Source of the DNA: Branchiostoma lanceolatum
Lineage: Eukaryota; Chordata; Leptocardii; Amphioxiformes; Branchiostomatidae
DNA length: 64,000 nucleotides
Direction: 5' to 3'
NCBI RefSeq assembly: GCF_035083965.1
Contig: NC_089723.1
Location: 36,029,193-36,093,192 of the forward strand
Shown here: positions 1,880 through 63,791 of the stretch, piece after piece
Layout: each line of letters starts with the position of its first letter
Position numbering within the stretch: the first letter of the stretch is position 1
Position numbers and translations under genes: made by a program
Notes under the pieces: generated by a model
Seen by the model: only the letters and a program-made list of their open reading frames with translations
Told to the model about the DNA's origin: nothing
Databases searched by the model: none

Positions 1880-2850
1880 CCAGGATCTATGAGAAAAGCC
1901 TTGTGGGGGCTTACAATGAACCATCATCAACTACAGTGCCTTTTTTTCGGAGATAAAAGAATACGTATACGTGTATAAATCACCTACAGGTAAAAACGAG
2001 ATGCCTGGTCCGGAAGTAAGATCTATAAGACCCTATAAGAAAAGCCTTGTGGCAGCTTAAAATGAACCATCGTCAACTACATTGCCTTTTTTTTCGGAGA
2101 TAAAAGAATACGTATACGTGTATAAATCACCTACAGGTAAAAACGAGATGCCTGTTCCGGAAGCAAGATCTATAAGACTCTAAAAGAAAAGTCCTTGTGG
2201 GAGCTCACAAGTAACCATCGTCATTTACATTGCCTTTTTTTCGGAGACATATAACGAACTACACACGCATACGTGTATAAATCACCTACAGGTAAGAACG
2301 AGATGCCTGTGCCGGAACCAAGATCTATAAGACCCTATAAGAATTGCCTTGTGGGAACTTACAATAAACAGTCGTCAACTACAGTGCCTTTTTATCGGAG
2401 ACACATAACGAACTACACACGTATACGTGTATAAATCACCTACAGGTAAGAACGAGATTCCTGTTCCGGAACTGAGATCTATAAGACCCTATAAGAAAAA
2501 TCCAGATGGAGCTTACAATGAACCATCGTCAACTACAGTGCCTTTTTTCGGAGACACAAAACTACAGACGTGTATAAATCACCTTTAAGAACGAGATGCC
2601 TGTTCCGGATCCAATATCTATTAGACCCTATATTATTAGAAAAGCCTTATGGGAGCTTACAATGAACAATCGTCAACTGCAGTGCTTTTTTTTTTTCGGA
2701 GACACATAAATAACTACAGCTGTATGAACGAGAAGCCTGTTTCGGAACCAAGATCTATAACTTATAAGAAAAGCCTTGTGGGAGCTTACAATGAACAGCC
2801 GTCAACTTCAGTGCCCCTTTTTTTCGGAGACACATAACTACATATCATGT
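1880..2850 (+). repeat. satellite-like tandem array, about 7 units of 129-154 bp
   Basis: Seven degenerate units can be lined up on the phrase AAGCCTTGTGGGAGCTTACA, with starts near 1901, 2047, 2195, 2349, 2503, 2647 and 2776. Most units then carry TTTTTTTCGGAGA, most have a CGTATACGTGTATAAATCACC stretch, and all but the last end in AAGATCTATAAGACCC or a close variant. Unit length shrinks toward the right as small segments are lost. Short ORFs inside are by-products of the repeat and not genes. Confidence 0.85.
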
Positions 2851-12110: not shown

Positions 12111-14570
12111 TCATTTGTCTTTCTTTTCCAGTTTTGTATGCGTTTGTTTCGCTGCCGAGTACAAACAAGAGCTAACGGTGTTTTTCGGACCCGTGCCGTA
12201 TTGTTTTTGGGTATCCCGTTTATTTGTAGACGGGGGGAGTACAACCTCTGCTGCGGCAGCGTAGAATGTCACGACGTCATCGTCATCGTCATCTTCCCCT
12301 TCCAAACACTGACTACTCTGTTCCTCGTTGTTACAGTGACTCTGTTCCTCGTTGCTTTGTTCCCTGTTCTCGTCCCCACTCATCACGTCTTGCGCTGAAA
12401 GTCCACCCACCTCTTCATCCTTGATTTCGGAGTACATGTGTGTCAAAGACGGGCCATAGACCTCCTCATCCTTGATTTCGCAGTAGCTGTGGGCGGAAAG
12501 TGTTGAAGAGTGACGACGGGTGCTCCGTTCTTTTGGATCAGTAAAATCTGTAGGTTGAGCCGAGGACTTTGTATACATCGGATTGGTGATGAGAGCCTTC
12601 ACATCGATAAGCTGACGGGTACCTCTTGGTGTGGTGACTGCATTTGGGGAAATGTTTTGGGAGCTGCTGTTTAGTGTGCTGTTCTCGACTCTTACAACTT
12701 GTACAGAGATGCCATGGGAATCTTCGTCCTTGATCTCAGTGTAAGTGTGGGTTCTGGTCGGGTCATAAACGTCTTCGTCCTTTATTTCACTGTACGTGTT
12801 AGCTGCGAGGTTAGAAGAGAGGCGGTACCGGGGGCTTTGTTCGGTCGTCAGGTCAGTATCATCCGAGGTTTGAGCCAAAGTTTGGTTCGATTTTGTATAC
12901 ATCGGATTGGTAATAAGGCCCGTTGCACCTATACCTAACTGGGCAAGTTGCGGCCTGTTTGTAGTATCTGGTGCATTTTGAGCGGAATCCCTGCTAATTC
13001 TTAGCTTGTAGGATACAAATATTATCAGAATCAATGGTACGGGCACGCCGAGTAGTGAGAAAAAGTATCGAGAGGCCGTATCCTTCGCAATTGGTAATGT
13101 GGTACTGGATTGAACAAAGGGAATAAGCGTTTTGTAGGGATCTTTTCCTATCATGGTAGTCAGACTTGGGCCATTGGTGCTATTCGTCAAGTGTATAGCA
13201 GAGACAGTGGTTTGACTATTGGACAAGGTTGAGACGGGACATTCCGAGTAGGCTCCTCCCACAGCACCTTGCTCAATCCAGAACAGCGGCGCTATCCGCC
13301 CAGGAAAAGATACAAGGCAAGATATATTCGTCACACCAGCTGGCTCTCTCTCAGACCCGTTCATCGTGAAACCATTGCTCTCGTAGCTAGATACCAGGGC
13401 AATACCGTCGCTTCCATTTTGCGACATCTCTGTATTCTCTATATTGACAAGCTTTAAGCGCACGCCGCCTATACGTGGCAAAGTCATTCCGTCATATCTT
13501 GTCCACGCCTCTGAACACAGCAGAGCAGCTGAGAAATAGCTGTATTCTGTTCTCTTCAGGTCCAGGGCGACAACAAACGGCGGCTGGATGTCAAACTGGC
13601 CTTTCACCTGAAACGACTTGAACTGGAAGTCTTCCGTCGCTGTCGCATATGTGAGGTCCAAAAACATGCTATCGATACGAAGGTGAACCTTCTCTTTCCT
13701 CTGACGAAAACTACTCTTGTACACAGTAAGACTCCAGTCTAATTCGTCATCTTGTTCCCAGGAAATGTTACGCTTTCCCCCTAAGCTAAAGGTCTGGAGT
13801 GACCGCCCGGAAAGTGCTCTCTCGCTCAGGCACGTCAGAGGGTTGTGGCTGATGTTCAGGGCACGTAGTTCGTAAAGGGAATTCAAGGCGTTTGTAGAAA
13901 TTACCTCAATCTTGTTGTGACTCAGAATCAGTGTGTGTAGGAAACTAAGACCACGGAACCATCCGCTTGCTACTTCAGTCAGCAAATTGTGGGACAAATC
14001 TAACCCCGTGAGATACGGGATGTTTTCGAAACACCCAGGTTCAAGTTCAGTAATACAGTTATAGGATAAGGACAAGTAGGCGGTAGAGTCGTACGAAGTG
14101 TTCCAGCCGGAGAAGTAACCACGTTTCAGCTGCGACATAATGTTGTAATCTAAATGTACTGACCGCAAGTGTGGAAATCTGGCGAATGTGTTGTCTTCGA
14201 TCGTGCTTATACCCGCATCTGTGATGACCAGGACCGTCAGTGAAGACGGGTGGATGTTTTCCAGGATTTGCGAGGACAGGTTTCCGACGGGGACGCCTCG
14301 TAGGGCGACCCACTGGGCAGCGGGAAACGGTCCGTACGCGGAAAGTGTAGGGCAGATGCGTGGTATATTTCCCATTAAAGCGGATTCCTCGCAATGCATA
14401 CATAAACAAGTAGCGTTTTGGTAGAAAACGTTACGAACCTTGATGTTGTCGGGCACGCACGTGTTCCATGGTTTTGATAAGCACTTGGGGCTGAAGTTGT
14501 GGTCGCGCGTTGCCGAGGCGCTGCCCATAACAGAAAAGATCACCAGGATCCAACAGCCGGTCTTCTTCAT
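12111..14570 (-). CDS. LRR transmembrane receptor with ITAM-like tail
   Basis: Single-exon ORF of 819 aa. A hydrophobic start (MKKTGCWILVIFSVMGSASA) looks like a signal peptide. A cysteine-rich cap (CLCMHC) and about six leucine-rich repeats with the LxxLxLSHNxLT pattern follow to about residue 250, then a region of roughly 250 aa with several NxS/T sites and no recognised domain. A transmembrane segment lies near residues 500-520. The tail has two modules of the form YxEI-13 residues-YxEI (Y593/Y610 and Y696/Y713) with a central VY (602, 705), and two NPMY motifs (Y558, Y666). NPxY binds PTB domains, and spaced YxxI pairs recall ITAMs; a phosphotyrosine signalling role is inference. The C-terminus is acidic (six Asp). 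The divergent paralogue lies at 20081-22354. Ligand unknown. Confidence 0.85.
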   Translation of the reverse strand: MKKTGCWILVIFSVMGSASATRDHNFSPKCLSKPWNTCVPDNIKVRNVFYQNATCLCMHCEESALMGNIPRICPTLSAYGPFPAAQWVALRGVPVGNLSSQILENIHPSSLTVLVITDAGISTIEDNTFARFPHLRSVHLDYNIMSQLKRGYFSGWNTSYDSTAYLSLSYNCITELEPGCFENIPYLTGLDLSHNLLTEVASGWFRGLSFLHTLILSHNKIEVISTNALNSLYELRALNISHNPLTCLSERALSGRSLQTFSLGGKRNISWEQDDELDWSLTVYKSSFRQRKEKVHLRIDSMFLDLTYATATEDFQFKSFQVKGQFDIQPPFVVALDLKRTEYSYFSAALLCSEAWTRYDGMTLPRIGGVRLKLVNIENTEMSQNGSDGIALVSSYESNGFTMNGSEREPAGVTNISCLVSFPGRIAPLFWIEQGAVGGAYSECPVSTLSNSQTTVSAIHLTNSTNGPSLTTMIGKDPYKTLIPFVQSSTTLPIAKDTASRYFFSLLGVPVPLILIIFVSYKLRISRDSAQNAPDTTNRPQLAQLGIGATGLITNPMYTKSNQTLAQTSDDTDLTTEQSPRYRLSSNLAANTYSEIKDEDVYDPTRTHTYTEIKDEDSHGISVQVVRVENSTLNSSSQNISPNAVTTPRGTRQLIDVKALITNPMYTKSSAQPTDFTDPKERSTRRHSSTLSAHSYCEIKDEEVYGPSLTHMYSEIKDEEVGGLSAQDVMSGDENREQSNEEQSHCNNEEQSSQCLEGEDDDDDDVVTFYAAAAEVVLPPSTNKRDTQKQYGTGPKNTVSSCLYSAAKQTHTKLEKKDK

Positions 14571-15269
14571 GTCTTAAGTAGTTTCCAGGCCTTATACTGA
14601 TGATCAAAAGAATGTTGACAGTGTATGTCGGGCCCTAGAGTAGCCTTTGAACTATCGACCGTATAAGAAAAGTACTCAGCCAAAATTTTTTTCAAACGCG
14701 ACACACTTTTTGTTTGGATGGATGGAGCACAAGTCGCCACAGACCCAACTGCGCTTAGGAGAAAAGGCTTATAATGACGCTCCTCGCGGTTTGTGTGGGC
14801 TTTTATTGCCATTTCTGTCAGAAGAGCGTAATCCGTTAAATCGGTATAATCCTACAGACCCCCGGAAAACACGTGAGGTGTGGCTGTTTACCTACTGATG
14901 AGTCTGTCATAAAATGTAGATATTGCGTAAACATGCAAATTTCTGTGCATTCTCCTCCATGCATCGAGACCTAAACAATTTTTAGGAAGGGATACATTTA
15001 AATGTTTTGATATTGGTGCCAGGATCCAGATGAAGGGGGTAAACCCCTTGAAAAGGGCAAAATGTTGCTGTTTTTTTTTAATCATTTGGATGAAATATTA
15101 TGTGACGACAGTCATTTTGTAATATTCAAATCCTGATTATTCAGACCCAGAATCGGTCCGGAAGTTTAAAGCAGGATTTGGCCGTGTTGTAGTTAGGTCC
15201 CGAGTTTGCAATCCAGCTAACACGTTATGCGAAGTATAGGCACACCGTTTGAAGCAAAGTGCGGTAGCG
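14571..15269. other. 5' flank of LRR gene
   Basis: Region upstream of the minus-strand LRR gene; it should hold its promoter. No TATA box is convincing and no second gene is seen. Confidence 0.35.
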
Positions 15270-20080: not shown

Positions 20081-22354
20081 ATGAAGCGGACCGGCTGCTG
20101 GCTCCTGGTGGTCTGCGCATGCTCTGTCCTCGGCAGTGCCACGGCGACGCGCGACCACGACTTCAGCCCCGAGTGCTTATCACTGAGAACCATGGAACAT
20201 GTGCGTGCCCGACAACATCAAGGTTCGTGACACTTTCTACCAAGACACTACTTGTATATGTATTACTTGCCTGACTGGACCTCCAAAAGGCTATTACGAA
20301 GACTCGGTCTGCGCTTCACTTTCCCACTACGGACCGTTCCCCGCTGCCCACTGGGTCGCCCTACGAAGCGTCCCCGTCGGAAACCTGTCCTCGCAAGCCT
20401 TGAAAAACATCCACCCGTCTTCATTGACGGTCCTGGTCCTTATAGCTGTAGGTACAAGCACGATCGAAAGCAACACATTCGCCAGATTTCCACACTTGCG
20501 GTCAGTACATTTAGACTATAACACTTTGTCGCAGCTGAAACGTGCTTACTTCTCCGGCTGGAACACTTCGTACGACTCCACCGTCTACTTGTCAGTTTCC
20601 TATAACCGTATTGCTGAACTTGAACCTGGATGTTTCGAAAACATCCCGTATCTCACAAGGTTAGATTTGTCCCACAATTTTCTGACTGAAGTAGCATGCG
20701 GATGGTTCCGTGGTCTTAGTTTCCTACACACACTGATTCTGAGTCACAACAAGATTGAGGTCATTTCTACAAACGCCTTGAATTCCCTTTACGATCTACG
20801 AGTCCTGAACATCAGCCACAACCCTCTGACGTGCCTGAGCGGGAGAACACTTTCCGGGCTGTCACTCCAAACCTTCAGCGTAGGGAGAGCTGAGAAATGT
20901 CTCTTTTCCCGACACACTCCTGATATAGAATCCAATACGACTAGTACTCACACAGAGTCCAGCAGTCTAATCACCCATAATGCTGCAGAATACTTGGAGA
21001 AAACCACCAGGCTGACGACCTTGATAGAACAGGATCCCTACAAAACGCTTATTCCCCTCGTTCAATCCAGTACCACATCATCAATTGCAAAGGGAGCGGT
21101 CTCTCGATATCTTTTGTTACTAGTCGCTTTGCCCGGACTGATTTTAATTTTGGTACCGGTGATAATGGTCTACAAGAACAAACGTAAGAGGAATGCCGCT
21201 CAAAATGTACCAAATGCTCCAAACACGTTGCGGCTTACTCAGCCAGGTATAACGTTAGGTGTAACTGGCAATACGAAGCGCAAAGGACCCGCACAAAAAC
21301 CGCCAAACTGCCCTGATGACAGCAGCAGTAGCGAGGAAACATCTATCCACACCTACGCGGTGGTAAAGGACGAAGACGTCCACGATCCGTCTAGAGATCA
21401 CAGCTACTATGAAATCAGGGACGAAGAAATCGGCATTTCCGTGCAGGACACAAGAGCGGAAAACGACGAACTGAACCACGCTGCTCAAAATGTTCCAGTT
21501 GCCACCGCCCAGGTGCACTGTAGCCATCAGGCCATCGATGTAACGCAGCTTATAAGCAATCCGATGTATCCAAAATCGAACCAAGCTTTGGCTCAACCCT
21601 CGGATGATACTGACCTGACCGAACAAAGCCCCTGGCACCGCCTCTCTTCTAAACTCCCAGCTAACACGTACAGTGACATAATGGACGAGGACGTTTATGA
21701 CCCGACTAGATCCCACACTTACACCGAGATCAAGGACGAAGAGGCTCACGGCATTTCTGTACAAGTCTCAAGAGTCAAGAACAGCAAACAAAAAAATACT
21801 TCCCAAAGAATTGCACCAAATGCAGTCACCTCACCACGAGGTACCCGTCAGCTTATCGATGTGACGGCTCTCATCAGCAATCCGATGTATATCAAGTCCT
21901 CGGCTCAACCTACAGATTTTACTGATCCAAAAGAACGGAGCAACCGTCGTCACTCTTCGACACTTTCCACCCACAGCTACTGCGAAATCAAGGACGAGGA
22001 GGTCTATGACCTGTCTTTGACACACATGTACTCCGTAATCAAGGATGAAGAGGTCGGTGGTCTTTCCGCGCAAGACGTGATGAGTGGGGACGAGAACGGG
22101 GAACAAAGCCGAACGAGGAACAGAGTTGTAACAACGAGGAACAGAGTAGTAACAACGAGGAACAGGGTAGTCAGTGTTTGGAAGGGGAAGATGTCGAACA
22201 AGCAGGAGACCCAGACGATGACGTCGTGACATTTTACGCTGCCGCGGCAGAGGTTGTACTCCCTTCGTTTGCAAATACACGGGATACTCAACAACAATAT
22301 GGCACGGGTCCGAAAAACACCGTTAGCTCTCGTTTGTATTCAGCTGCGCAATAA
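20081..22354 (+). pseudogene. LRR receptor paralogue with two frameshifts
   Basis: The start MKRTGCWLLVVCACSVLGSA mirrors the signal peptide of the 12111-14570 gene. A 4-nt excess near 20186-20196 shifts the frame, so the first reading closes at 20230 and the main ORF is 20199-22229 (676 codons). Near 22110 a 2-nt excess shifts the tail again; the paralogue-like C-terminus continues in the other frame to a stop at 22352. Between them lie the cysteine cap, about six LRRs, a much shorter juxtamembrane ectodomain, a transmembrane helix (LLLLVALPGLILILVPVIMV), and a tail with three paired-tyrosine modules and two NPMY motifs. AATAAA is near 22572. It is either a young pseudogene or an intact gene with sequence errors; the long open middle favours recent decay or error. 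Confidence 0.7.
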
Positions 22355-22925
22355 CCGCATACAGAACTCAGAAAAAAAGATAAATGATAGTTCAATGCAA
22401 TGAGTTTCTTTCTTGCCAAATTTGTGCTTTATTTGTTGAATGCGATAGTTCAAAGCAAGCATATCTTGTACCTATTTTGTACTGCGTTTGTTTTGTGTAA
22501 TACCCATCACGCCAAAGTGGACAGGTCGAACGTCTCAGGTGATGCTGTCTACCTCTGGATCTGTTTGAGTTAATAAACATTTTATATCACATTTGTGCAT
22601 TTGTCTTTGTGTTTCCTCTTAAGTTACCTCAATGACATAATATAGAATTAGAAATGCCAATGGTGCTAATGCTAATGGTAGGCATTAGGCAAGTCAGTTG
22701 AAGTACCGGCGTACCTTACGCTTGACTACTTCAAGCAACTGGATACAATGTTTTAGAGTGAGGCGGTTCAAATAGCACCCACTATTTTCCGTCAGTGACT
22801 AAGAAGTTAAAGTCAAGTCAGTTGAAGTTTCACCGTTTTGCCAAATTGATATAAACTGCCGGTCTGTGGAGCGAAACTCTTGGCTTAAAAGTCGTGGCGA
22901 CTTACCTTTTATTGTTTTATTGCAT

Positions 22926-23007
22926 GACGAGGTGGCCGAGTGGTTAAGGCGATGGACTGCTAATCCATTGTGCTCTGCACGCGTGGGTTCGAATCCCATC
23001 CTCGTCG
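22926..23007 (+). tRNA. tRNA-Ser (anticodon GCT)
   Basis: 82 nt with a perfect 7-bp acceptor stem (GACGAGG with CCTCGTC), discriminator G, A-box TGGCCGAGTGGTTAAGGC, and B-box GGGTTCGAATCCC. Anticodon stem TGGA/TCCA encloses CT-GCT-AA with GCT at 22959-22961. The long variable arm (TGCTCTGCACGC) is typical of class II serine tRNAs. A T-rich stretch follows as Pol III terminator. It reads serine AGY codons. Confidence 0.95.
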
Positions 23008-23317
23008 AAATTTATTTTTAGGTGCTGCTATGTAGACAATCGCAATCTCCCTTCTTTCGAGAAATTTCCCTCAGCGTTTTCCATTGGACGTTTCGGCCAA
23101 TTGTTATTAGTTTTCGTTCAAAAAGTTTTGAGTTGATCTCTATACGTGTTTAGGCTTGTCATAGTACATTTTCTTCGGAAAAAAAATGACGGACCATACA
23201 AATACGTACATGTATGACATTGAACCAAGCCACCGCACATCTGCTTGGAGACCATTGTGATGGGATCCTTACATCATCTCGCGGGGCGGCGCGAGAGGGA
23301 ACGAGGTCAATTTCAAA

Positions 23318-47363: not shown

Positions 47364-50301
47364 AATTTTACTAAAGCTATGATGTTATAGAAGAGCTTTG
47401 GTTGCACACTTGTCTACAGCGCAAGTTGATGCTTTGAGGATAAGATTACATCAGACTCTATACCGTTGACTAGTTTCCATGCGTCCTTTTTTCAAACAGC
47501 AATATGAAAAAGCAGCCGGTTTCAATAAATGCTGACCGTCAATACTTACTCGACATCGACTTCTTCTGCGCGGGACCTCGGGCTGTAACTCCTAACCTCA
47601 GCACGCTCTTCCCTCGGACTTTTCTCGACGCGTGCTGGCGGTTGTGTCTGTTCTTCCCCGGTTCCTCCCGAGCCCGTCGCCGTCGCTATGTTGGGACCTG
47701 GGTCTTCTCTCGGGCTCAAAGCCCGTTCTGGCTGGTTTCTAGGGTCAGGATGTTCTCTCCCTTCTTTCACCCGTTTGAACAACTTCTTAAGTCCTTTCTT
47801 CAAGTGCAACTTTGTTGCTTTGGGGGGAGGGAGAGTGTGTGTGAGGCCCTGGGTACTGGATTCGCCACGGTCTTGAACTTGTGGAGTTTCCAGCCAATTG
47901 TCCGGCAGTGATGCATGGCGCGGACGGGTCTGTACAGTAGCCGGATTTGGCTTCAACTCCGATCCATGTTTTGGCACAGGCGGGACTTCCTCGGTTGGAA
48001 ACATCGGTTCAGGTTCGGCAGCAATGCTCAATGAAGCACTGCGTATGCCTTCCCGGGAACGCGGAGGGACGGGGGGAGGGGCCACGATGTCCTCGTAAGC
48101 AGACACGAGTGTACGCTTCTCGAAATAGATGTGCTCGGGGAGCCTTTCGATGGGGTAGTACCTCACCTTGACTCTGTGGTCAAGTTCTGTGTAAAGCTTC
48201 ACTTTGTGTTTCACCTTGAGACTCGCGTGCAGGGGGATCTCGAAAATCGGTTTGTCGGGAGACTCGTTGTCGTACTCACTCGCCACTACGTAGATCTCGT
48301 CGTACATTCCCTCAACAGTCATTGTCGACATGTAAGCAAGCGTCTTGTCGGGAAATTTCGGGTCCCCCCTGACAAGTGCTATTGTTGTGGGCAGTTCTGG
48401 ACGTTCGTTCCCGAAGAGTTCTCTCAGAGTAAACTCAGACCTCTGATTCTTATCCTCTAAGATTTCTTCAAACGGACAGACCATGGAGAGAGGGATTCTG
48501 ATCGGTTCTGCCTTAACTCGGCCGCTTTCCTGCCTCTGTTCGCGCGTGCAGAGCAGATACTCCACGTGCCCGCTGGGTTGGCGATCGCACGGGACTTTCC
48601 CCTTCTTGTCCGTCGGCGCTATGATGTCGTCGACGAAGACAGAGTCCAAGTCCGGATGTGAAACGGGAACTGTTTTTGTAGCTCGAACTTTCCCGTCCAT
48701 CTCGGATATGTGCAAGTCGTGAACTGTTGGATACATTTGCGGCCTCTTCTCGAAAACCCCGCGGTAGCTTTCTCTGATGGCCACCTTGGTGGTTTCGTCT
48801 CCGGCCAACACAGTCCTAACGGCCACGTCATAGTGTATGGTGAGACGGACGCCCTTCTGGATCCTGACAGCAGTCCCCTTGGGGTGGAACGTCCCCTCTG
48901 TGGTCTCTACCAAGACGGGAAAACCCTGTCCGTACTTGCGACACACTTCGGACAGGTCCATGGAGTGCTGGAAGTCGTCTTCTCCTGTTGTGATGGGGCG
49001 CACGAAGATAGGCCAGTCCACGGGAAGCGTCTTGCGTAGAGCGCCGTTTCTGGTCACGACTTCCACTTCCTTGGGAAGTTGACCTAATATATACAGAAAT
49101 AAATAAGGAAAAAGTGTCAGTTAAAAACAGCCGTGAATGAGTTAATCATCAATCTACACATTGCAGCACCGACTCTTAAGATCTTAGCTACAGTGCGAAG
49201 TAGAACCAGTCAGTATTCCCAAGAGAAAGGTGACATGCTAGCCTCCACCAGGCCTTCCTACAGGGGTACGGACGTACCATTTGTCAAACGGATATATAAT
49301 TGTCAGTCCACGTGAAGGTTAAGATTTCCCCTTCCGAAGCTAAACTCCCCTGTCAAATATTCTTCCTATAGTTAGTTTGGCAGTGAGACTGGTGGCAGAC
49401 GGTCACTGAAACGCCGGCCTCTGTAACTCTTTGGTTGTGAATAAAGATCTCTGTTATTCAGCTAAGCACAGCGTTTGAGAAATAGCAACTCGGAACCCGG
49501 AAGTGACGGATGGCCCTTGAAAACATAACAGTGAATGCCATTTTACTAAATTAAAACTTCTTCTGCATCGCACAACATGTATATTCGTCCTTAGCTTTAG
49601 TGCATATCACAGTAGCGTCGTAGCTACAAGACGAGGGTTAGACGTAGCCGTGGATCACGGTTAAGCATGACCTCCCATTCACGGTCATGGTATATACCTG
49701 GTATTCATGTAAAGTCAAACCTGTACAAGTTCATCAAGTTACCACCTGGAAAACCTGACTACTTTAACCACTTTTTAGAGGCTACTATTTTTTTTCCCAT
49801 CGACACAAGTACAGTATTTTAAAAGAGCCCTGTCTAAAGTGACCCCCTGTCCACATGAACCAGCGTTTATTGGTCCCTTGAGTGGTCTTCTTGAGTCGTT
49901 TTGATTGTAATGGCGAGGCCACTGGCATATTACCTGTCTAGAGCTACAGTACTTAAAATAAAGATACTCTTAAAAAGCTCTTTTTTGGGTTGATTCACAC
50001 GAACAACTGTTGTTTAACACGCTCAGAGACCAGTTGACACACTTAGGTGAGAGTTTTAGTGTCCATTACAAGCTGCTTTAGATTCAATCTACGAAGTTAT
50101 TTATTTCCGGGTTAGACCGAACCTACCTCTTCTGAGCCTGGGCGAGTTTCTTGCCGGTAAAATCCTTATAACGTCGCCGATGGAGAAGTCACTGTCGAGG
50201 GTGGTCGCATACAGGCCTTCGGCTACTTCCACAGTGGCGGGCAGCGCGTGGTCGGACACAAACTGCTGTAGGGTAGTTACCGACTCCTCCGACGCCGCCA
50301 T
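42184..50301 (-). CDS. CABIT-SAM adaptor (GAREM/THEMIS-like), 5 exons
   Basis: Exons on the minus strand: 50301-50127, 49083-47550, 47056-46779, 44861-44697, 42482-42184; 2451 nt, 816 aa. Exon 1 (LQQFVSDHALPATVEV..., GDVIRILP) and most of exon 2 form a CABIT module. Exon 2 then has SH3-ligand stretches (APPPVPPRSR, EEVPPVPKH, LPPPKATK) and a basic patch. Exon 3 carries YLTPLTSP and YVTPVTSP plus a doubled DPAMSLPT segment; exon 4 has DYIEM. Exon 5 ends in a SAM domain (about 70 aa). CABIT, proline/tyrosine linker and SAM is the order in GAREM, a GRB2-binding regulator of growth-factor ERK signalling; THEMIS has CABIT modules without SAM. Orthology is not settled. A tandem paralogue lies upstream at 53824-56680. 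Exon 3-4 intron holds a piggyBac-like element. Confidence 0.88.
43685..43985 (+). mobile_element. tRNA-derived SINE in intron 4 of the CABIT-SAM gene
   Basis: Head with TAGCTCAACTGGTAGCAGCC (A box) and ACGGTTCAATCCTGG (B box), body with GGGGCTACACCCGTCTT and CCTGCTACTGAAACAGCAGG, and a terminal AACGAACAAACAAAC stretch. It differs from the 16485 SINE in body sequence, so it is a second family. Confidence 0.65.
45367..46716. mobile_element. non-autonomous piggyBac-like element, 1350 bp
   Basis: The element is bounded by TTAA at 45363-45366 and 46717-46720. It has perfect 16-bp terminal repeats CCCTCAAACCACCGTA, and subterminal TATGGGGTCAAAACTGACCCCA, inverted at the other end. TTAA target duplication and CCC-starting ends are the hallmark of piggyBac. 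The interior is AT-rich with no transposase ORF. It sits in intron 3 of the CABIT-SAM gene, 59 bp from the donor of exon 3. Confidence 0.85.
47269..47362. repeat. (CT)n microsatellite in intron 2 of the CABIT-SAM gene
   Basis: An almost pure CT run of about 90 bp on the plus strand (GA on the gene strand). Confidence 0.95.
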
Positions 50302-53823: not shown

Positions 53824-56680
53824 TTAATCCTTACTGTGCCTCAGGTGCGTTTTTGCTTCTTCAACCTTCCTCGTCACCGCACCGAACATTCTCGACATGC
53901 TTCGCACAAAGGCATTGCTCCCGTCTTTAGCTCTGGTAAGGGTCGTGAAAGTCGTCTGTGCAGGGAGCGTCTTGCTGCCCCATTGGCTCAGATGGGTGTC
54001 ACTCTCTGACAGCGGTCTGGAGCGGGGATGATAGCGATCTAAGTGTCCTGAGTCTGGATGGAACGTCTGCCTCCAACTTTTATCATTTGACGGAGGTCTG
54101 CGAGCTCTCTGAAGAGACGTCCGCCGTAGGGGCACGGCTGGGATGGCTTGTTCGGGTGGGTCGTTGCTAGGAGACCCCGTTCTGTTCCCAGTTGATGTAG
54201 AGAAATGAGGCAAGTTAGAAGGGCGCGGCGGTAGAGGAGGGGGTGTGAGGATACTCTCATATGTTGTAACGTTCGTCAGTTTCTCATTGAACACATCTAC
54301 GGGAAGAAACTCGATTACCTGGTGTTGTGCAACGACTTTCGAAACGACGTGGTCATTCCTCTGGCACAGTTTGACCTTAACGTCGGCGTGTGTTGGCATT
54401 TCGAACGCCGTTGTCGTTTTGTCGGTACGTTTGCGTTCTCTTGCCACCAAGTACGTGTCGCTGTACTCACCCCGAACCGATATAGTGCCGATGGTAGACA
54501 GGTGATCATCGGGAAAGGTCGGGTCACTTCGGACAAGTTCGACATTCACCGGCAACTCCGGAGACATTCGGACAACTTCCACGATTGTGTATCCCGAGCT
54601 TTGCCCGTCGTGGGTAAACGTGGCGTCCAGGCATTCTTCAAACAGACAGTCAGCGAAAAGGGGTATTCGGATCGGGATTTCGTCACCCGTAGTCCTGTCT
54701 TTGCGCATGCACAGTAGAAAGTCCTCCTGTACTTCTGAACTTGAGGTGGACGGCGTTTTTCCGACTACGTTGGTCGGGATGAGTATGTCGTCGATGCTAA
54801 TGTTGTCTAGCCTGCCAAGAGGAATCTTAGGTGATCTTAAGACTCTGACTTCTCTATCTATAGCTGAGGAATACAGGTCGGAGGCAGACAGATACCTCTT
54901 TGGTTTGACACGAAACCTACCCTGATAAGCATCTCTTATTGCTATCTTTGTATCTCCACGTTCGGCTAACACAACCTTAACAGTCTTGCCCATGTACACT
55001 ACCAACTGGCTTCCAACTTTTAAACGGGCGTTGTCAGACTTAAACCGTCCCTCCGTTACCACAACATCCACGGGGAAGACGGCGCCTCTTTTCCTCAGGA
55101 GTTCGCGGAGGCTCATGGGCGGCTGAAAGGCGGTGCTCTCAACCGAATGGACGGGAATGATGAAGAGGTCTGAGTAGACTGAGTGGGTCTTCACTTCTCC
55201 TGTTCCTTCGATCACGATGTCGACGACATCGAAAGGAGGAGCGTCACCATCTGGATCGTACCCTTTGTGGAATAAAAAGAAAAACATGATGACAACAATG
55301 TACCGTAGAGGGGAAAATGTTCGCGGGTATAACAAAAAAAAATGTAAATGCAGAAGTGTTCGCGGTGGTTTCATGTTCGCGGTTTTCGCCGTGAACTCTC
55401 CGCGCGAACTTAAAACCACCGTGAAACCTTTCGCCTATCTATGACTGAAGGGCTAGTATTGTTTCAAACGAGAACTTAAAACCACCGCGAACACTCCATT
55501 TTCTCCCTACCGCGAAATAAAAACCACGTCAACGTAAATGCATACAGTAGTTGGTTTCGCTGTAGGCAGAAAATGGAGAGTTTGCGGTGTTTTGAAGTTC
55601 GCGGTTGAAACAGGGATGTGCAGTAGGTTCTGGGTAGAAGACAAAACGAAAATCTTTTGGCGATGGTTTTGAGTTCGTGGCGAAAAGGTCAACACGGAAA
55701 CCGCGAACATGAAACCACCGCAAACATTTCCGCTTTTACAGTATTTCAGGATAGTGATGTGTGTGTCAAGTTGCGTACGTGCGTCTGCATAGGGCACAGC
55801 GAGGACAGCGCAAGTTATTCTGTGACCTTTCAAAAGGCCGTGCAAACAGTGAGCACAGCCCAGAAGTCAAATATTAACCAATGAAATGGAGACGACAAAC
55901 AGTAACATGCATTGTCAGGTGCAAGGGAACTACGACAATGCATGGAACCGTTTTTAGTTCACATGTGCTTTAAGTAGGTATATGATGAAACAAAGATGAT
56001 TTACTCACAAAACATGAAGGATTAGTCACAGGAGTGTGTAATGATAAAAAGGTGTAGTTCGAAGAAATTGGTTTGTAGGGTTCATTCAATCGGCAAAGAA
56101 GACATTTTGACTCCAAGCGAACCATGAAACACATACCAATGCGCTATATCGTGGATTCTCTTCAGAAGAGCACCAGAAATTGTACAGAAAATTGTTTATA
56201 AATATTTGAATTAGCGGCCCCATTCACTTGATAAAGCTTAGGGAAAAACGGATGTAATCTATCATATCATTGACATAATTTTGGTGCTCACAGGCAATCA
56301 TAAATTACACATTAAGTTTATTACTGCCACCGATTTAAAAAGAACCCCATCGAGTAGAATCACCAGAACTATGTGAAACCAACACACTCAAACAATACCT
56401 TAACACTACATTGGATAGAAGGTGGGCGAGACGCACCTATTTCTTATAGCTTGTCTAGTTTTCTGTCTAAACGTGGTACAGGAAATAGTTTTAAAAGATA
56501 CCCACCCCGAGGCCTGGACTGACGTTTGGGCGGCAGTATCTTTATGACGTCCCCCAGGGAAAAGTCGCTGATGACGTCAGTAGAGTAGATTCCTTCCGTA
56601 ACTCGTACAATCGCGGGAAGTTGGTGACTTCTGACAAAGTTTTCCAAAGACATGGGGCGGTCGCCTGACGCCCCCGCCAT
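53824..56680 (-). CDS. CABIT-domain adaptor without SAM, 2 exons
   Basis: Exons 56680-56506 and 55262-53824 sum to 1614 nt, 537 aa. The first exon (MAGASGDRPMSLENFVRSHQLPAIVRV..., GDVIKILPP) is exactly 175 nt with a phase-1 end, the same as in the CABIT-SAM neighbour, which supports this ATG over the upstream in-frame ones at 56695 and 56815. The CABIT region (to about residue 390) shares the VDDI/IDDI, RIPL and FPD.(T/H)L anchors with the neighbour. The tail has TPPPLPPRP, a class II SH3-ligand-like site, and a basic arginine stretch. There is no SAM domain. A donor-like CA/GTAAGG lies just before the stop, so splicing to an unseen exon is possible, but none was found before 50.3 kb. Adaptor role by family; partners unknown. 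Confidence 0.85.
55341..55742. mobile_element. MITE-like inverted repeat in the CABIT gene intron
   Basis: Left TGTAAATGCAGAAGTGTTCG with GGTGGTTTCATGTTCGCGGTTT is inverted at the right end (AAACCGCGAACATGAAACCACC, CGCTTTTACA). Internal AACTTAAAACCACCGCGAACAC repeats occur. A fragment of the family lies near 1040-1125. It begins about 80 bp upstream of exon 2. Confidence 0.7.
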
Positions 56681-56815: not shown

Positions 56816-58019
56816 CTCTTTAGAATACTACTAGTAGGGTTTGATAATGTGCACGTCTGGTGGTCTGGTATCTTTGGTGATGTTCTAATTCACCGAATCT
56901 TGTAGTAGCATTTCAGCGTTACGAGACTCAGAATATTAAACAAAAAGTGTAAGAAGCATAATCTACTTGTGTTTTAATATTCTATATATCTTTTTTTCAC
57001 GATTGTCTTTTGAATCCTATCCTTTGAATAATTTGTCATTTAGTTCCTCCCAATGATTTGAAATAGCAAAAAGTTTACATATTCTTAAGTTTCTACATTT
57101 CAAACAATAGTAGATTTTTAAGTTTGCTATTTCTAATAAATTAACAAAGATAGAATTCTTAAAAACTTCGATCCAACTAAATTAGTTTTTCACTTTAGTA
57201 ATACCTCGATCACCGTTAAGTGAGCACTCGAGTGAGTACAAAGTACCACATTCTTAATCATTAGCGACAGCGAAATCTCATGACGTGTGCCATTTACATT
57301 TCTTTTGGGACATTAAACTAGTAAATACATCTCGCTTGTTCACTTGAAAGTTCAGTTCAGCTTTTAAAGTTTAAACTTCATTCAGGACATCTCGATTGTA
57401 TTAATCTGAAAAATCTTTATTTGATGGAGTTCTGGTTTCAATCTCTTTCCATCGTCTCGTTTCCAGTTACAATTTTATTATTATGATGTAATGAGAGTAA
57501 TTTGGCATTGATTAGGTATCAAAACTATTCTGATTAGTATCCATGATAGGGGTCGTAAGTTAATGGTGTAGTTTGGGTTCTTGTGCAATAAGAACGTAAA
57601 TAACGAAGATTCTAAAGGATTGGAATAGGTTAAGTCCGCACATCCGTGTAAATATAAATTCTAAAGATCAAAATCAGGAAAAACATTGCAAGACTTCATG
57701 CACATGAAAATATACATGCATACAAAGTGTGACTTTGGTATGCGAAAACCATCTAAAATTTTCCGTTGAGTGATAGCCATTGCAATCATATACATGTATT
57801 CGTTTCCTGAATGAAAATATGTGTGGTATTGCACTTTGAAATAAATTTTCATTACTTCTTTGTTTGGAGTCCTGAGAACAATCACATCAGCTATTTCTGA
57901 GTACCACCGTTGGGATCCGAGGAATGCTTAGGTCCCAATTAGAAAAAGGATCAAAAAGGGGTTCATGTGAGATGAGGTGTATCCCCTACAACCAACAAAA
58001 ATTATAGGTTGTCATCCCG
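56816..58019. other. intergenic, AT-rich
   Basis: It lies upstream of the CABIT gene (minus) and downstream of the kinase-like gene (minus). No exon, tRNA or clear repeat was found. Confidence 0.4.
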
Positions 58020-58268
58020 CTAGATTGATTCGGATACGGTACACTAGAGTACGACGTAGTTAGCCTGAAAGTGTTCGTCGTGAAAGCTAAGTCTACTGGA
58101 CGATCGTGATTCCCCCGTTTTGTTGATGTTCTCTTTCCTTGTCATTACGCTAGACTGATTTGGATACGGTACACTAGAGTATGACATAGCTAGCCTTAAA
58201 GTGTTCGTCATGAAAGCTAAGTCTACTGGACGACCGCGAGTCTCCTGTTTTGTTAATGTTCTCTTTCC
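58020..58268. repeat. tandem duplication at the 3' end of the kinase-like gene
   Basis: Two units of about 119 bp, 58020-58138 and 58150-58268, share TAGA.TGATT.GGATACGGTACACTAGAGTA, AGTGTTCGTC.TGAAAGCTAAG and TTTTGTT.ATGTTCTCTTTCC. The right unit contains the last about 32 codons and the stop of the kinase-like gene; the left unit is a downstream non-coding copy. Confidence 0.85.
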
Positions 58269-61200
58269 AGCAGCTGGCCGTCAGACGGCTCTCCGGCTCG
58301 CTTGCCCAGCAGCACGCCATGACGGCGGTCCACTTGTTGTAGTCCCGGGGTTCCCGGATGTAGGCGCCCTCGCTGGGGTCCTCCGGAGTCTTCGGACGAC
58401 GGTTGCTGCAGACGAAGTCTTTCAGTTCCGAGAACGTCCTGATGTTCTCGTCCACGTAGGCACTTCCGGTGTAGCATATCTCCCACATCATGAGACCTGG
58501 GGAAAGGTGGGGTAATCATGACTTCTCAAAATATGCCTCAAACTACAATGGAAAAGTTGCTCAAGTAGCTGCCGTGGATAGATTTTGTCAGACGTTTCAG
58601 GTAGCGTCCGCTATCTTTCGTCAGTTAATGTGGAAGGCCTGATAGCTGATGCTACCTAAAACGCATGACCGGTATATAGATGTCTAACTTTCACCAAATA
58701 CCTAATATGAAATTGCAGTTGTGTGAGCTGACAACGGTCTGATTATCTCATCTGCTTACACTTTGGGTAATATTTCACCAGGATGCATGTACATGACTGT
58801 ATAAGCTAACCTATCTTCAACAGATATATCGATTTCTACATGTCGCATAGTATGAGTTAAGTCCAACTATTGTATAATCATATGATCGTTACCATGTATT
58901 TTGTATCCATATGCCTGTACTTAGCCCGTGATAGGGCATGAATGTACAAAAAAGGTTATTATCATAATGATTTACGTGTGGGTCACGACACCAGCAATAG
59001 TCTTACGTGCAATTCTGATAAATCTCTGTGGTTCAAAGCGTTGGTAGAAGTTGATCGATCAATATGAAAACGATATGGTCTTGTCGCAGATGTATAAGAC
59101 AGTCCAACTCAACTGCGAATTAAATCTGAAGAGTTTGTATGAACCTTGCTGGCCCGAGTTGCGTTAACCCAATCACACCTACCTACGGCATACATGTCCG
59201 ACTCGGTGACGTAGTCCTGCCCCCGCAGGACCTCGGGTGCCAGGTAGACGTATCCCCCCGCCTCTGTCGTATCAAATGACCCCTGGTGCGGCAGGCTGGC
59301 TTCACGGGGTTTCCCGATGTTCGTAAGCTTCACCACGTCATCGCTGTCAACCTGAAGATGAAAACACAGCGGTGCATTTGTAATGTGATAGGTTTCTGGG
59401 TCCGACTACCTTGAGTGGAGCAGGAAACATGACAGAGGGAGGGTATCATGTTATACGTGTCTAAGATATGATTTATTCGTCCGTCTATGTGCCTCGTAAG
59501 CACGGACAAGCACAATCATCCATTGCTATCTAGACAACGGAAAGAAAATGACCAGTCACAGCCACGGTAATGTATGGTACCATGGTATACAAAGTCTTAC
59601 GCAAAATAGCTCATATGTTGGTCGTACATTAACAATGAGTATAATAAAAGAAGGACAGTCTTTTATTCAATTATAAAGCTCCATTTTATCAAGCCCAGTC
59701 TTATAACAGTTTTCATGAAAAAAAAAACAAGGATTACGTGAAATCTTTACATACCGCCACAGTGCTGAGTGACAAGTCGAGATGCACGAGGCCCTTGCTG
59801 TGCAGGTACTCCAACCCGTTTACAACCTGCATCATGATTCCCATCAACACGTCATAGGGCGCGTACGCGTTTTTCATGAGCGCTGATTGGTGGATGTCGG
59901 AGATGCGTGTGCGCAGGTCTGTCACCACGGGTGTGAAAACGAGGCAGGGCAGGTGGCCAATCCGCGAGAAGCCGCTCAGGTGTATCAGGTTTAGGTGTTT
60001 CTTCACCTTTCTGGAAAACAAATACGACATTTGTAATTTTCTAAAAGAAGCTGGGGTTTAACATCACAGAGTAGGAATCCAGAAAATGGCTGTTTTATTC
60101 AGTATGCCTGAAACTGGACCAAAAATAAATGAAAACATAATTCGGAACTCAATTCCTGTGTCTGCCCTCTGATTTCATGTTCATATAATGTATAGTAAGA
60201 ACTGTTCAGGATCACCACTCAGAGGGCCGATAAAATCTGGTCCATGTGGAAAGGTGATCGCTATGGACAGGGTTCTTTAAAATGATTGTGTCAATGGGAA
60301 AATCATCTATAAGGGACCACCAAAAAGTGGTCACATTGGTCAGGTCGTCTTTATGAAGAAGTGGTCGCTCGTACAGGTTCGACTGTACTTCTACAATGAG
60401 TCACAGGCTGCCCTCAATATTCACCTGAAAATATCTTCCTCCTGTAGGAACTCCATGACGTTCCGGTGAGTAATCTTCCCCCTGAACAGTTTGATGGTGA
60501 CAGGCTTCGCCCCGGCCGAGCCTACCTGCTGAGGCCGCAGCTCTCCCCGCTTTAGTTCTGCCCGTAGTCCTGAGCAGATGGGGCCTTCATACACATCCTG
60601 CAACAGACAAGGATGGTCTGAGTATTTTATGTAAGGTATACTAGACTAATAAGGACCGATGTAATGGCCTAGTCGGTTCGCATTGTACACGGTAGGTCGT
60701 GAGCTAGTAGCCTGGGTGCCATCCTATTTTTACCGGTGCTCCTACATTAGACAAATGAAGGAGCCCCGGTAGAAATAGGATAGCACCCAGGCTAGTGAGT
60801 TCGATCCCGGCCAAGGACTTTGATAATGGTACATACTGCTTTCTCTGCTCAGCACTCAGCATTTGGGAAAGATTATGGGAGTTGAAAACATATCGCTACC
60901 AGTGGGCTTTCCTCCCTGTTTTAGTGATTGCACAACGTTGTGTGGCCCAAGGGCTATTGAAACGGAGGTGGGCGACGCCAAATACACCATCTTGTGACAG
61001 AAATACTTTAACTTACTAGACTATGTACTCCATGTGTACCGGTGAAATGGCCTAGTGTGTAGGGTGTACCTGCTGTTTACTCTGCTTGGCACTAAGAATT
61101 TGGGAACGAGTACGGTAGTTGAACACACACCACCTGTGCTGTAAAGATTGCACAAACCTGTGTGGCCCAAGGGCTTAGGATTAGAGATGTGCGCTACCAT

Positions 61201-63791
61201 AGGACATGTATGGTGTGGGAGAACTTTAGCTTGATATTGACTTCATCTATGTGTGTTACACACATACAAGCCAATTGAATTGAAAAAAAAGAATTTCGTG
61301 TGCTTCAAATTAAGTTTTTTTTTCTGATGAAGTTACAGCCAACTCACAACTGAAGGAAAAACGTCAACTGAGATCCACTATAGCTAAAAACTTTTTCAGT
61401 CAAACTATCCTCAAACAAACAAGGGAGCAAACAAACAAATCAACAAACGAATAAACCATACCCGAGTGGCGAAGGCTACGGTTTGTGGGTCGATGTCGGG
61501 AGCCCAGAGCTCCTGGACCCAAAAGGCCTTCAGCCTTCGATGGAAGTTGTCCATGACTTGGAGAAGTGGAGAGTAATATATGGTGTAGACCTGGAACAGC
61601 AAGGACAAGGTTACTACCATTAAACACCAATGATAACAACAGCGTGATATCACAATCTCTACAAATCTACAAAATTTATTTGACCCCCGACCGTTTCATC
61701 TCTAGTGTCTTTTCTTTTCATCCCTAGCGTCCTACCTTTCCATCCCTAGCGTCTTACCTTTCCATCCCTAGCGTCTTACCTTTTCATCTCTAGCGTCTTA
61801 TATTACCATCCCTTAGCGTCTTACCTTTCCATCACTAGCATCTTACCTTTCCATCTCTAGCCTCTTATCTAGATCTTTCCATCCCCAGCGTCTTACCTTT
61901 CCATACCTTAGCTTCTTACCTTTCCATCCCTTAGCGTCCTACCTTTCAATCCCTAGCTTCTTACCTTTCCATCCCTAGTGTCTTACCTTTCCATCCCTAG
62001 TGTCTTACCTTTTCATCCCTAGCATCTTCATTCAGGTCCCTGACCAGGTCCAGGTCGAGTTGGATCTGTTTGGGGACGACCTCCTGCAGCTGCTCCAGGC
62101 AGTAGTAAGCTGGCTTCAGCTGGTAAGGTAAGACACCGCTCTATCTCTAGCGTCTTACCTTTTCATTTCTAGCGTCTTACCTTTCCACCCCTGGCGTCTT
62201 ACCTTTTCATCCCTAGCGTCTTACCTTTTCATCCCTAGCGTCTTCATTCAGGTCCCTGACCAGGTCCAAGTCCAGCTGGATCTGTTTGGGGACGACCTCC
62301 TGCAGCTGCTCCAGGCAGTAGTAAGCTGGCTTCAGCTGGTAAGGTAAGACACCGCTCTATCTCTAGCATCTTACCTTTTCATTTCTAGCGTCTTACCTTT
62401 CCATTCCTAGTGTCTTACCTTTCCATCCCTAACGTCTTACCTTTTCATCCCTAGCGTCTTCATTCAGGGCCTTGACCAGGTCCAGGTCCAGTTGGATCTG
62501 TTTAGGGACGACCTCCTGCGACCTCCTGCAGCTGCTCCAGGCAGTAGTAAGCCGGCTTCAGCTGGTAAGGTAAGACACCTCTCTATCCATAGCTTCTTAC
62601 CTTTTCATTTCTAGCGTCTTACATTTCCATCCCTAGTGTCTTACCTTTTCATCCCTAGCGTCTTCATTCAGGTCCCTGACCAGGTCCAGGTCCAGTTGGA
62701 TCTGTTTAGGGACGACCTCCTGCGACCTCCTGCAGCTGCTCCAGGCAGTAGTAAGCAGGCTTCAGCTGGTAAGGTAAGACACCTCTCTATCCCTAGCGTC
62801 TTACCTTTTCATTTCTAGCGTCTTACATTTTCAACCCTGGCGTCTTACCTTTTCATCCCTAGCGTCTTCATTCAGGGCCTTGACCAGGTCCAGGTCCAGC
62901 TGGATCTGTTTTGGGACGACATCCTGCAGCTGCTCCAGGCAGTAGTAAGCCGGCTTCAGCTGGCTTCTGACGTAATCCCGCAACTCGTTACTCCGGACAA
63001 ACTGCTCCAGCTCCTTCAGAGCCATGCGGCTTAGGTAACCATACCTATAGCATGATGATACAGAAATGAGAGTTATGTTTGGAGTAAAGAAAACGAAACG
63101 CAAGAATAAATGAGATATTCTTCGTACACCCGAAAATGCTTCCATGTAAGGTAACCATACCTATGGCATGATGATAAAGAAATTTGAAGCAGTTATGTTT
63201 GGAGTAAAGAAAAAGAAACGAAATAATATTTTTCGTACACCCGAAGATGCTTTCATGTTACACCGTGGCTTGTTGGCAATGACCTTCTAGTCTCTACAAT
63301 ACTTCATCGGTTGCTGGGGAAATAGTCGAAATCTGGCCAAATATAATGAATAGAAGTTTATTTTTGCAGCCTACAGTTCTCTGGTGTATCATTCAGTATA
63401 GTTGGTCATTTTCTGCTGATTTTCTAGCAACATATGAAGTCTGGTAGAGAAAATGAATTTGTTGGTACAAAGATGCAAATTTTAGTGATAGAAACTTCTT
63501 CCCATTGCACTTCTCTAAACAGTAACAAACAAAAAACAAAACAATTTGGATACACGAGCTAAGTGTTTCATTAGAAGTCCCAGAAAAGAAAACTACAGAA
63601 TGCTGTCTACACCTAACACTTAGATATCAAGAAAAGACTTACTTGTCTTGTTGGTAGGTGTTGACCTCCTTATCCTCCCTGCTCCGTTCCACAATCCTCT
63701 TCAGCTCGACGATCCCGTACACAGACAGGCCGAAGAACGCGGCCACGACGCCGATGGGGAGCCATATGGGGGACGTCACGCCAAGGGTAAC
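58174..63791 (-). CDS. transmembrane tyrosine-kinase-like protein, likely pseudokinase (5' partial)
   Basis: Exons in the window (minus): 63791-63643, 63044-62849, 61590-61462, 60597-60425, 60010-59755, 59351-59183, 58496-58174; 1395 nt, 464 aa, phases consistent. The first visible exon encodes a transmembrane helix (WLPIGVVAAFFGLSVYGIV) then a basic stop-transfer. About 110 residues of juxtamembrane sequence precede a kinase-like domain: VTIK (beta-3 Lys kept), QEE in helix C, HLDLSLST in place of HRDLAARN, TNIG in place of DFG, YLAPEVL (APE kept), SDMYAVGLMMWEI and CCWASEPESR. Loss of the DFG aspartate and the catalytic-loop Asn suggests no or altered catalysis (inference). Part of exon 63044-62849 is repeated downstream in the intron. 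The ectodomain, if any, lies beyond the right edge. Confidence 0.82.
58563..58700. mobile_element. MITE-like inverted repeat in the kinase-like gene intron
   Basis: GATAGATTTTGTCAGACGTTTCAGGTAGCG faces TGATGCTACCTAAAACGCATGACC across a TTTCGTCAGTTAATG centre. Same family as 1-318 and 36848-37022. Confidence 0.6.
60658..61022 (+). mobile_element. tRNA-derived SINE interrupted by a MITE
   Basis: Head ATGGCCTAGTCGGTTCGCA (A box) and GAGTTCGATCCCGGCC (B box) are separated by the inserted element at 60708-60794. The body (TGCTTTCTCTGCTCAGCACT, TTGTGTGGCCCAAGGGCTA) recurs at 61040-61265. Removing the insert and one duplication restores a continuous tRNA-like head. Confidence 0.75.
60708..60794. 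mobile_element. 87-bp MITE nested in a SINE
   Basis: TAGCCTGGGTGCCATCCTAT and ATAGGATAGCACCCAGGCTA are near-perfect arms, and the pairing continues through ACCGG and GGAGC. The flanks GTGAGCTAG and GTGAGTTCG match at 7 of 9 positions; the right copy is the SINE B-box sequence. Same terminus as 32495-32563. Confidence 0.85.
61040..61265 (+). mobile_element. second copy of the same SINE, degraded
   Basis: ACCGGTGAAATGGCCTAGTG, CTGTTTACTCTGCTTGGCAC, TGTGTGGCCCAAGGGCTTAG and a GATGTGCGCTACCATA stretch parallel the element at 60658. Its B box is lost. Confidence 0.65.
61713..62008 (-). repeat. 22-bp minisatellite built from a 5' splice site
   Basis: About 14 units of TCTTACCTTTCCATCCCTAGCG. On the gene strand each unit reads like AGGGATGAAAAG/GTAAGA, the last codons and donor of the exon ending at 62849. 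Three to five more units lie between each pair of the exon copies at 62009-62849. Most units keep the GTAAG core. Confidence 0.85.
62009..62765 (-). repeat. four extra copies of a coding-exon 3' part
   Basis: Copies at 62009-62119, 62225-62335, 62441-62561 and 62645-62765 repeat the 3' 111 nt of the exon 63044-62849. Spacing is 216, 216, 204 and 204 bp to the live exon. The two distal copies (62009, 62225) are intact: 37 in-frame codons (LKPAYYCLEQLQEVVPK... to DEK), flanked by TTACCAG acceptor-like and GTAAG donor sequence, phase 0 on both sides. The two proximal copies carry a 10-nt internal duplication that causes a stop. Confidence 0.85.
63285..63460. mobile_element. degraded MITE (TCTCTACCAG type)
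   Basis: TAGTCTCTACAATACTTCAT, GGTTGCTGGGGAAATAGTCG and CTGGCCAAATATAATGAATAG face TTGGTCATTTTCTGCTGATTTTCTAGCAAC and GTCTGGTAGAGA. These are diverged arms of the 39661-39857 family. It sits in an intron of the kinase-like gene. Confidence 0.6.

What the first reader, a model, noticed from the sequence alone, without database searches (positions are those of the whole stretch)
61713..62960. A coding exon and its splice donor amplified into an array inside a kinase-like gene
The 3' 111 nt of the exon at 63044-62849, with its GTAAG donor, is repeated four more times downstream in the same orientation. Two copies keep an open 37-codon frame with acceptor-like and donor sequences and phase 0 on both sides, so their inclusion would lengthen the juxtamembrane region by 37 residues each without a frameshift. 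Two copies have an identical 10-nt duplication that makes a stop. Divergence between copies (for example LQEVVPK versus LQDVVPK, VRDLNED versus VKALNED) argues against a simple assembly artefact. This could be a length-polymorphic or alternatively spliced segment.
Basis: partly seen in the sequence, partly recalled or inferred. Interest (0 to 1): 0.78.

Follow-up and report, generated by a model that had tools for sequence, protein, structure and literature searches.

The report
Nested exon-edge repeats in kinase gene
The end of one exon of an animal kinase-like gene, together with its splice signal, has been copied over and over into the next intron at two nested scales; this is a new and unusually elaborate case of a repeat type already described in lancelet genes, and it is not known whether the extra exon copies are ever used.

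Summary
Exon E2 (63044-62849, minus strand) of a transmembrane, kinase-like gene is followed in its 1258-nt intron by four same-orientation copies of its last 111 nt. D3 and D4 are open and in phase; D1 and D2 share a 10-nt duplication that makes a stop.

(1) A nested repeat: a 22-bp minisatellite, GACGCTAGGGATGAAAAG|GTAA, spans exon end and donor; the intron holds 20 exact copies of the donor AAGGTAAGA. (2) The acceptor-like tract before each copy is a short inverted copy of that donor (12-nt match; 0 of 20,000 shuffles and 0 of 2,044 window 18-mers reach it), so it can pair with nearby donors in a 12-13 bp stem. (3) Such exon-boundary arrays are published in amphioxus as "mirages" (Adh3, TnC, globins; PGBD5 likened to them); they vary in length and are reported not to disturb splicing.

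Best reading: a two-level mirage, mostly spliced out as intron. D3/D4 inclusion (+37 or +74 residues) is possible but unproven; mostly synonymous differences between copies are a weak hint of past coding constraint. The organism was not identified. New variant of a known kind.

The parts
62849..63044 (-). Authentic exon E2 (196 nt; begins after 2 nt of a codon, ends at a codon end), juxtamembrane segment
   Evidence: Gene model with intact frame, E1 partial
62645..62765 (-). Copy D1 of E2's last 111 nt, with 10-nt duplication and stop
62441..62561 (-). Copy D2, same 10-nt duplication and stop
62225..62335 (-). Copy D3, 37 open codons, phase 0/0
62009..62119 (-). Copy D4, 37 open codons, phase 0/0
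62766..62848 (-). Linker E2-D1 (83 nt): 22-bp minisatellite units, then inverted donor and CAG
62562..62644 (-). Linker D1-D2 (83 nt), same architecture
62336..62440 (-). Linker D2-D3 (105 nt), one more 22-bp unit
62120..62224 (-). Linker D3-D4 (105 nt)
61690..62028 (-). Terminal 22-bp minisatellite, about 15 units, the first of which includes D4's end
   Evidence: TRF period 22, 15.0 copies, score 408
62771..62780 (+). Inverted donor core in the pyrimidine tract before D1
62567..62576 (+). Inverted donor core before D2
62341..62350 (+). Inverted donor core before D3
62125..62134 (+). Inverted donor core before D4
63033..63258 (-). 116-bp x2 tandem duplication over E2's acceptor, including the first 12 exonic nt
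61462..61590 (-). Next authentic exon E3
   Evidence: acceptor score 10.4
58009..58268 (-). 130-bp x2 duplication over the last 30 codons and stop of terminal exon E7 and into the 3' region

Best explanation
A two-level 'mirage' (a minisatellite that spans an exon-intron boundary). Shown by the sequence: the last 18 nt of exon E2 plus the first 4 nt of the intron form a 22-bp unit that is tandemly amplified. A larger unit (194-226 bp: 111-121 nt of exon plus a linker of minisatellite units ending in an acceptor-like junction) is itself repeated, giving four exon-tail copies and 20 exact spare donors. The junction in front of each copy holds a short inverted copy of the donor, which provides a pyrimidine tract before a CAG that is already a codon of E2. 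Inferred: the array arose by replication slippage or template switching (a fold-back at the junction made the inverted piece) and turns over by unequal exchange. In most mRNAs E2's own donor joins E3's acceptor and the array leaves as intron, because the copy acceptors have short AG-free tracts that tend to be locked in stems, and because extending E2 to any of the 20 later exact donors runs into a stop after 71 codons. Copy number probably differs between haplotypes.
For: Nested arrays: TRF periods 22 and 216/204, unit-by-unit split, 27 ungapped unit matches, 5 of them the exon ends. 20 exact AAGGTAAGA in the 1258-nt intron; 28 donor-like sites scoring 6 or more there, versus 1, 2, 0, 0 and 2 in the other five introns, recalled matrix. 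Inverted donor: 12-nt reverse-complement match between the 18-nt junction and the minisatellite (consensus plus one variant unit); 0 of 20,000 shuffles (largest 8) and 0 of 2,044 window 18-mers ending in CAG outside the array (largest 9) reach 12. Local stem of 13 bp in 3 of 4 junctions, 12 bp with one mismatch in the D1-D2 linker. All 20 later exact donors give the same stop. Exchange: D2 is E2-like at variable columns 9, 80 and 83, D1-like in the 10-nt duplication and column 48, and its linker is the 105-nt type of D3. Published mirages: same definition, both exon edges affected, 6 versus 3 units in two haplotypes, regular splicing.
Against: No RNA evidence. The organism is not identified, so the cephalochordate context is inferred. 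Synonymous bias among copies (6 of 9 variable columns) is not what purely intronic drift predicts. The copy acceptors outscore E2's own acceptor on the recalled matrix (7.7 versus 4.2), and the copies' donors equal E2's. Fold z-scores are modest, -1.37 to -2.54. E2's donor is not specially open in the model: its mean pairing is 0.44, while several spare donors are at 0.10-0.30 and three at 0.98, so folding alone does not explain why E2's donor would win.
Confidence: 0.72

Rival explanations
1. D3 and/or D4 are real cassette exons that lengthen the juxtamembrane segment by 37 or 74 residues in some isoforms or haplotypes; D1 and D2 are decayed copies.
For: Phase 0/0 and open frame for D3, D4 and D3+D4. 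Donor score 10.3, equal to E2's, the best of six authentic donors; acceptor 7.7, within the authentic range 4.2-12.6. D1, D3 and D4 differ at 6 columns, all synonymous (chance 1e-4 to 9e-4 under three mutation models, subset chosen after seeing the data); over all five copies 6 of 9 columns (0.005-0.03). An amphioxus VCBP3 cDNA that takes up a duplicated, divergent exon is published.
Against: AG-free stretch 15-17 nt against 18-73 at six authentic acceptors; pyrimidine tract paired with mean probability 0.78-0.93 in the folded model. E2 against single copies shows only 3 of 6, 2 of 3, 3 of 6 and 5 of 8 synonymous. Exchange with the constrained exon E2 also explains a synonymous bias, and D1 shows it although it carries a stop. 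In lancelet PGBD5 a gene model that made an exon of such repeats was rejected by the authors for lack of transcript support.
Confidence: 0.2
2. Assembly error or joined haplotypes: the true locus has fewer copies, or the copies are alleles placed in tandem.
For: Arrays of this kind are hard to assemble: one published mirage haplotype was aberrant in the draft genome (legend of Additional file 4), and lancelet PGBD5 repeat numbers differ between two sequence versions.
Against: Copies differ pairwise at 3-8 of 111 columns, have 83- or 105-nt linkers, and two share a 10-nt duplication. The inverted-donor junction is not in E2 itself and would not come from stacking alleles of E2. Re-examined reads upheld the PGBD5 repeats. 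The exact copy number could still be wrong.
Confidence: 0.08

Closest known systems
Amphioxus 'mirage' minisatellites (Adh3; globins BflGb6, BflGb9), Ebner et al. 2010 PMC3087553, and Canestro et al. 2002 as cited there (not read)
   Same: Tandem repeats that span an exon-intron boundary, units of 10-72 or 150-160 bp, many copies carrying AG/GT signals, imperfect copies, either exon edge affected
   Different: Here two unit sizes are nested, the amplified segment has an acceptor-like junction made of an inverted donor so that whole cassette-like copies exist, and the same exon also has an acceptor-side duplication. In the section and passages read, no nested array or inverted donor is described.
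Lancelet PGBD5 60-bp and 108-bp repeats over splice sites, PMC3902484
   Same: Repeats overlap exon edges; a JGI gene model made an extra exon (57 residues) out of them; copy number differs between two sequence versions
   Different: No inverted donor or nested minisatellite is mentioned in the passages read.
Human internal tandem repeats at exon-intron boundaries, PMC2812944
   Same: Boundary repeats can create new introns or alternative splicing
   Different: Primate genes in segmental duplications; half of the variable repeats lie in coding exons (passages read).
[quoted passage not shown] potato RdRp, PMC4974935)
   Same: Duplication supplies splice signals for new introns or exons
   Different: In those cases the tract is inherited from the parent intron, or AGGT is duplicated; here the pyrimidine tract is a donor in reverse complement.

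Membership tests
Mirage minisatellite | Tandem repeats that span an exon-intron boundary of a coding exon | tested here: met
   22-bp unit = 18 exonic + 4 intronic nt; large unit = 111-121 nt exon-like + linker; the exon itself is predicted, not shown by RNA
Mirage minisatellite | Copies retain splice-site sequence | tested here: met
   20 exact copies of the donor 9-mer in the intron
Mirage minisatellite | Copies imperfect, with signs of exchange between units | tested here: met
   3-8 differences of 111 per pair; D2 mosaic
Mirage minisatellite | Length instability between haplotypes or within an individual | not testable with these tools
   Only one sequence of the locus on hand; no genome is held for the window
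Mirage minisatellite | Normal splicing in spite of the repeats | not testable with these tools
   No RNA data
Mirage minisatellite | Described in cephalochordates | not tested
   Organism not identified: no genome held, and I ran no scan of the sequence collections, which are described as viral, phage, plasmid, prokaryote and metagenome records
Alternative cassette exon array | Open frame, compatible phases | tested here: met
   D3 and D4 yes, D1 and D2 no
Alternative cassette exon array | Acceptor with an AG-free tract as long as the gene's own acceptors | tested here: not met
   15-17 nt, below the smallest of six authentic acceptors (18); not proof of disuse
Alternative cassette exon array | Transcripts that include the copies | not testable with these tools
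   No RNA data
Protein kinase (host gene) | Kinase domain profile | tested here: met
   PF07714 E 2.4e-28, PF00069 8.4e-25
Protein kinase (host gene) | Catalytic motifs HRD...N and DFG (motif names recalled) | tested here: not met
   Aligned to FGFR4, HRDLAARN reads HLDLSLST and DFG reads NIG; pseudokinase-like

The most novel reading that the evidence does not exclude
A splice donor copied in reverse complement became the pyrimidine tract of a splice acceptor, so that a boundary minisatellite gave birth to complete, in-phase cassette exons (D3, D4). These are or were translated in some isoforms or haplotypes, making a juxtamembrane region whose length changes in 37-residue steps between individuals, while the intron's 20 spare donors and donor-acceptor stems set how often they are used.
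Probability: 0.17. Interest if true: 0.72.

Novelty: new variant of a known kind. Interest (0 to 1): 0.43.

Why it matters
If the array is simply spliced out, it is a natural test of how the spliceosome picks the first of 21 identical donors (E2's own plus 20). If D3/D4 are used, it catches exon birth in the act and gives a concrete source for the missing pyrimidine tract: an inverted donor. The published mirage model for intron gain needs a suitably placed acceptor to be present or to arise by mutation; this locus shows one way such a sequence could come with the same rearrangement.

Tried and rejected
Chance placement: the three tandem duplications that TRF found in the gene all touch an exon edge or gene end, but random placement gives three of three with P = 0.23, so it is not evidence of targeting. 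Pfam on E2 alone gave only sub-threshold DIL (0.059) and RHH_1 (0.27) matches, taken as noise. Compensatory change in the four stems: D2's keeps pairing through wobbles and D1's breaks a pair, so there is no covariation evidence (read by eye). Hairpins as guard of E2's donor: rejected, since E2's donor is no more open than many spare ones. Upstream copy of E2's acceptor (exon start 63160): nearly as strong as the real one (4.16 versus 4.23), but reading in from it meets a stop. The E7 duplication (7 synonymous and 4 amino-acid changes before the stop, 4 changes after it) fits one constrained and one free copy, so no claim is drawn. The donor and acceptor matrices are human-like values recalled from memory, so scores are only relative. 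Paper searches. Searches (the exact phrase 'mirage minisatellite'; identical donors and U1) found nothing. Canestro 2002 was not held (one search used a wrong DOI) and is known here only through citing papers. Search of the window's own genome was not possible. Structure prediction and scans of the sequence collections were on offer and not used.

Full report
What is there. The minus strand of 63791-58174 carries a gene model with an intact frame: E1 partial to 63643 (a hydrophobic, transmembrane-like stretch, judged by eye), E2 63044-62849, E3 61590-61462, E4 60597-60425, E5 60010-59755, E6 59351-59183, E7 58496-58174; the six introns between them are GT/AG. Pfam PF07714 matches at 2.4e-28. 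The best solved-structure match is FGFR4 at 9.1e-17; in that alignment the lysine of VAIK is kept, but HRDLAARN reads HLDLSLST and DFG reads NIG, so the product looks like a pseudokinase (motif names recalled).

The array. Intron 2 is 1258 nt. It holds four copies of E2's last 111 nt: D1 62765-62645, D2 62561-62441, D3 62335-62225, D4 62119-62009. D1 and D2 carry a second GCAGGAGGTC and run into a stop; D3 and D4 are open. Of 16 inclusion patterns, 4 keep the frame. Copy-to-copy spacing is 194, 204, 226 and 216 nt.

The second level. Exon end and donor, GACGCTAGGGATGAAAAG|GTAA, form a 22-bp minisatellite. Each copy up to D3 is followed by 3-4 full units, its own exon end counted, and a hybrid last unit; the terminal array from D4's end has about 15. 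An ungapped scan found 27 units with at most 6 mismatches, 5 of them the exon ends. The intron holds 20 exact AAGGTAAGA; sites scoring 6 or more number 28, against 1, 2, 0, 0 and 2 in the other five introns (matrix recalled, relative use only).

The acceptor tract. In front of each copy stands GGTGTCTTACCTTACCAG. Its reverse complement shares 12 nt with the minisatellite (consensus or one variant unit); none of 20,000 shuffles (largest 8) and none of 2,044 window 18-mers ending in CAG outside the array (largest 9) does as well. The CAG is E2's own codon, so the tract alone was added. In 61-nt local folds the last donor before each junction and this tract form a stem of 13 bp in three junctions and 12 bp with one mismatch in the D1-D2 linker. 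In longer folds the tract may pair with an earlier donor of the linker instead. Energies against shuffles are modest, z -1.37, -1.62, -2.54 and -2.23. In a folded model of 62980-61540 (span limit 300) the tracts are paired with mean probability 0.78-0.93. E2's own donor is at 0.44; the spare donors range from 0.10 to 0.98, so the stems hide acceptor tracts rather than spare donors in general. A fold-back template switch at the first large duplication would make such a junction; this is inference.

Are the copies exons? For: frames and phases; donor score 10.3, acceptor 7.7, within the authentic range 4.2-12.6; 6 of 9 variable columns synonymous over all five copies (chance 0.005-0.03) and 6 of 6 among D1, D3 and D4 (1e-4 to 9e-4, a subset chosen after seeing the data; the extra 10 nt of D1/D2 were left out of the columns). 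Against: E2 compared with D1, D2, D3 and D4 singly has 3 of 6, 2 of 3, 3 of 6 and 5 of 8 synonymous differences; AG-free stretch 15-17 nt versus 18-73 at six authentic acceptors; the stems; and two stop-bearing copies lying nearest to E2. D1 shares the synonymous pattern in spite of its stop, and D2 is a mosaic of E2-like, D1-like and D3-like parts, so exchange with the constrained exon explains the bias without any use of the copies. Of the 21 identical donors, E2's is the only one that E2 can run to with an open frame: the 20 later ones give a stop after 71 codons.

What is known. Section 16 of PMC3087553 (read whole; [quoted passage not shown] It reports 6 versus 3 units in two haplotypes, cites somatic instability at Adh3, says that Adh3 data and globin RT-PCR suggest regular splicing, and proposes that mirage units may become exons. 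PMC3902484 (passages) reports 60- and 108-bp repeats over splice sites in lancelet PGBD5, with different copy numbers in two sequence versions and a rejected gene model that made an exon of them; it likens them to mirages in globins, Adh and TnC. PMC2812944 and PMC4974935 (passages) cover human boundary repeats and intron gain by duplication. PMC2632668 (passages) reports intronic exon-like copies in amphioxus VCBP3 and a cDNA that takes up a divergent duplicated exon with a premature stop. In what I read I saw no nested array and no inverted donor; the searches made were made, in an open-licence library only.

Verdict. A new, two-level variant of the mirage kind. The organism is not identified here; a lancelet is my inference from the array type. 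Mostly intronic removal is the best reading (0.72); occasional or haplotype-bound inclusion of D3/D4 is the main rival (0.2).

Noticed in passing
63033-63258 (-): 116-bp tandem duplication that copies E2's acceptor and first 12 exonic nt; the upstream acceptor copy (exon start 63160) leads to a stop.
   Followed up: yes
58009-58268 (-): 130-bp tandem duplication of the last 30 codons and stop of the terminal exon; the second copy lies after the stop and stays open (7 synonymous, 4 amino-acid changes before the stop).
   Followed up: partly
1887-2693 (+): 154-bp array, 5.4 copies; four units carry CACCTACAGGTAARAACG, an acceptor- and donor-like motif; possibly another boundary array, host gene unknown.
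   Followed up: no
12114-14573 (-) and 20187-22226 (+): Two long reading frames with similar sequence, by eye, in opposite orientation; the first has leucine-rich repeats by Pfam, the second was not scanned.
   Followed up: partly
47549-49120 (-) and 53827-55434 (-): Two long reading frames that look related by eye; the first matches Pfam CABIT (1.9e-9), the second nothing at 0.01.
   Followed up: partly
22925-23008 (+): tRNA-Ser (gct), the only Rfam (gathering threshold) and ARAGORN hit.
   Followed up: no
58174-63791 (-): Host gene looks like a transmembrane pseudokinase: HLD for HRD, T for the loop N, NIG for DFG.
   Followed up: partly
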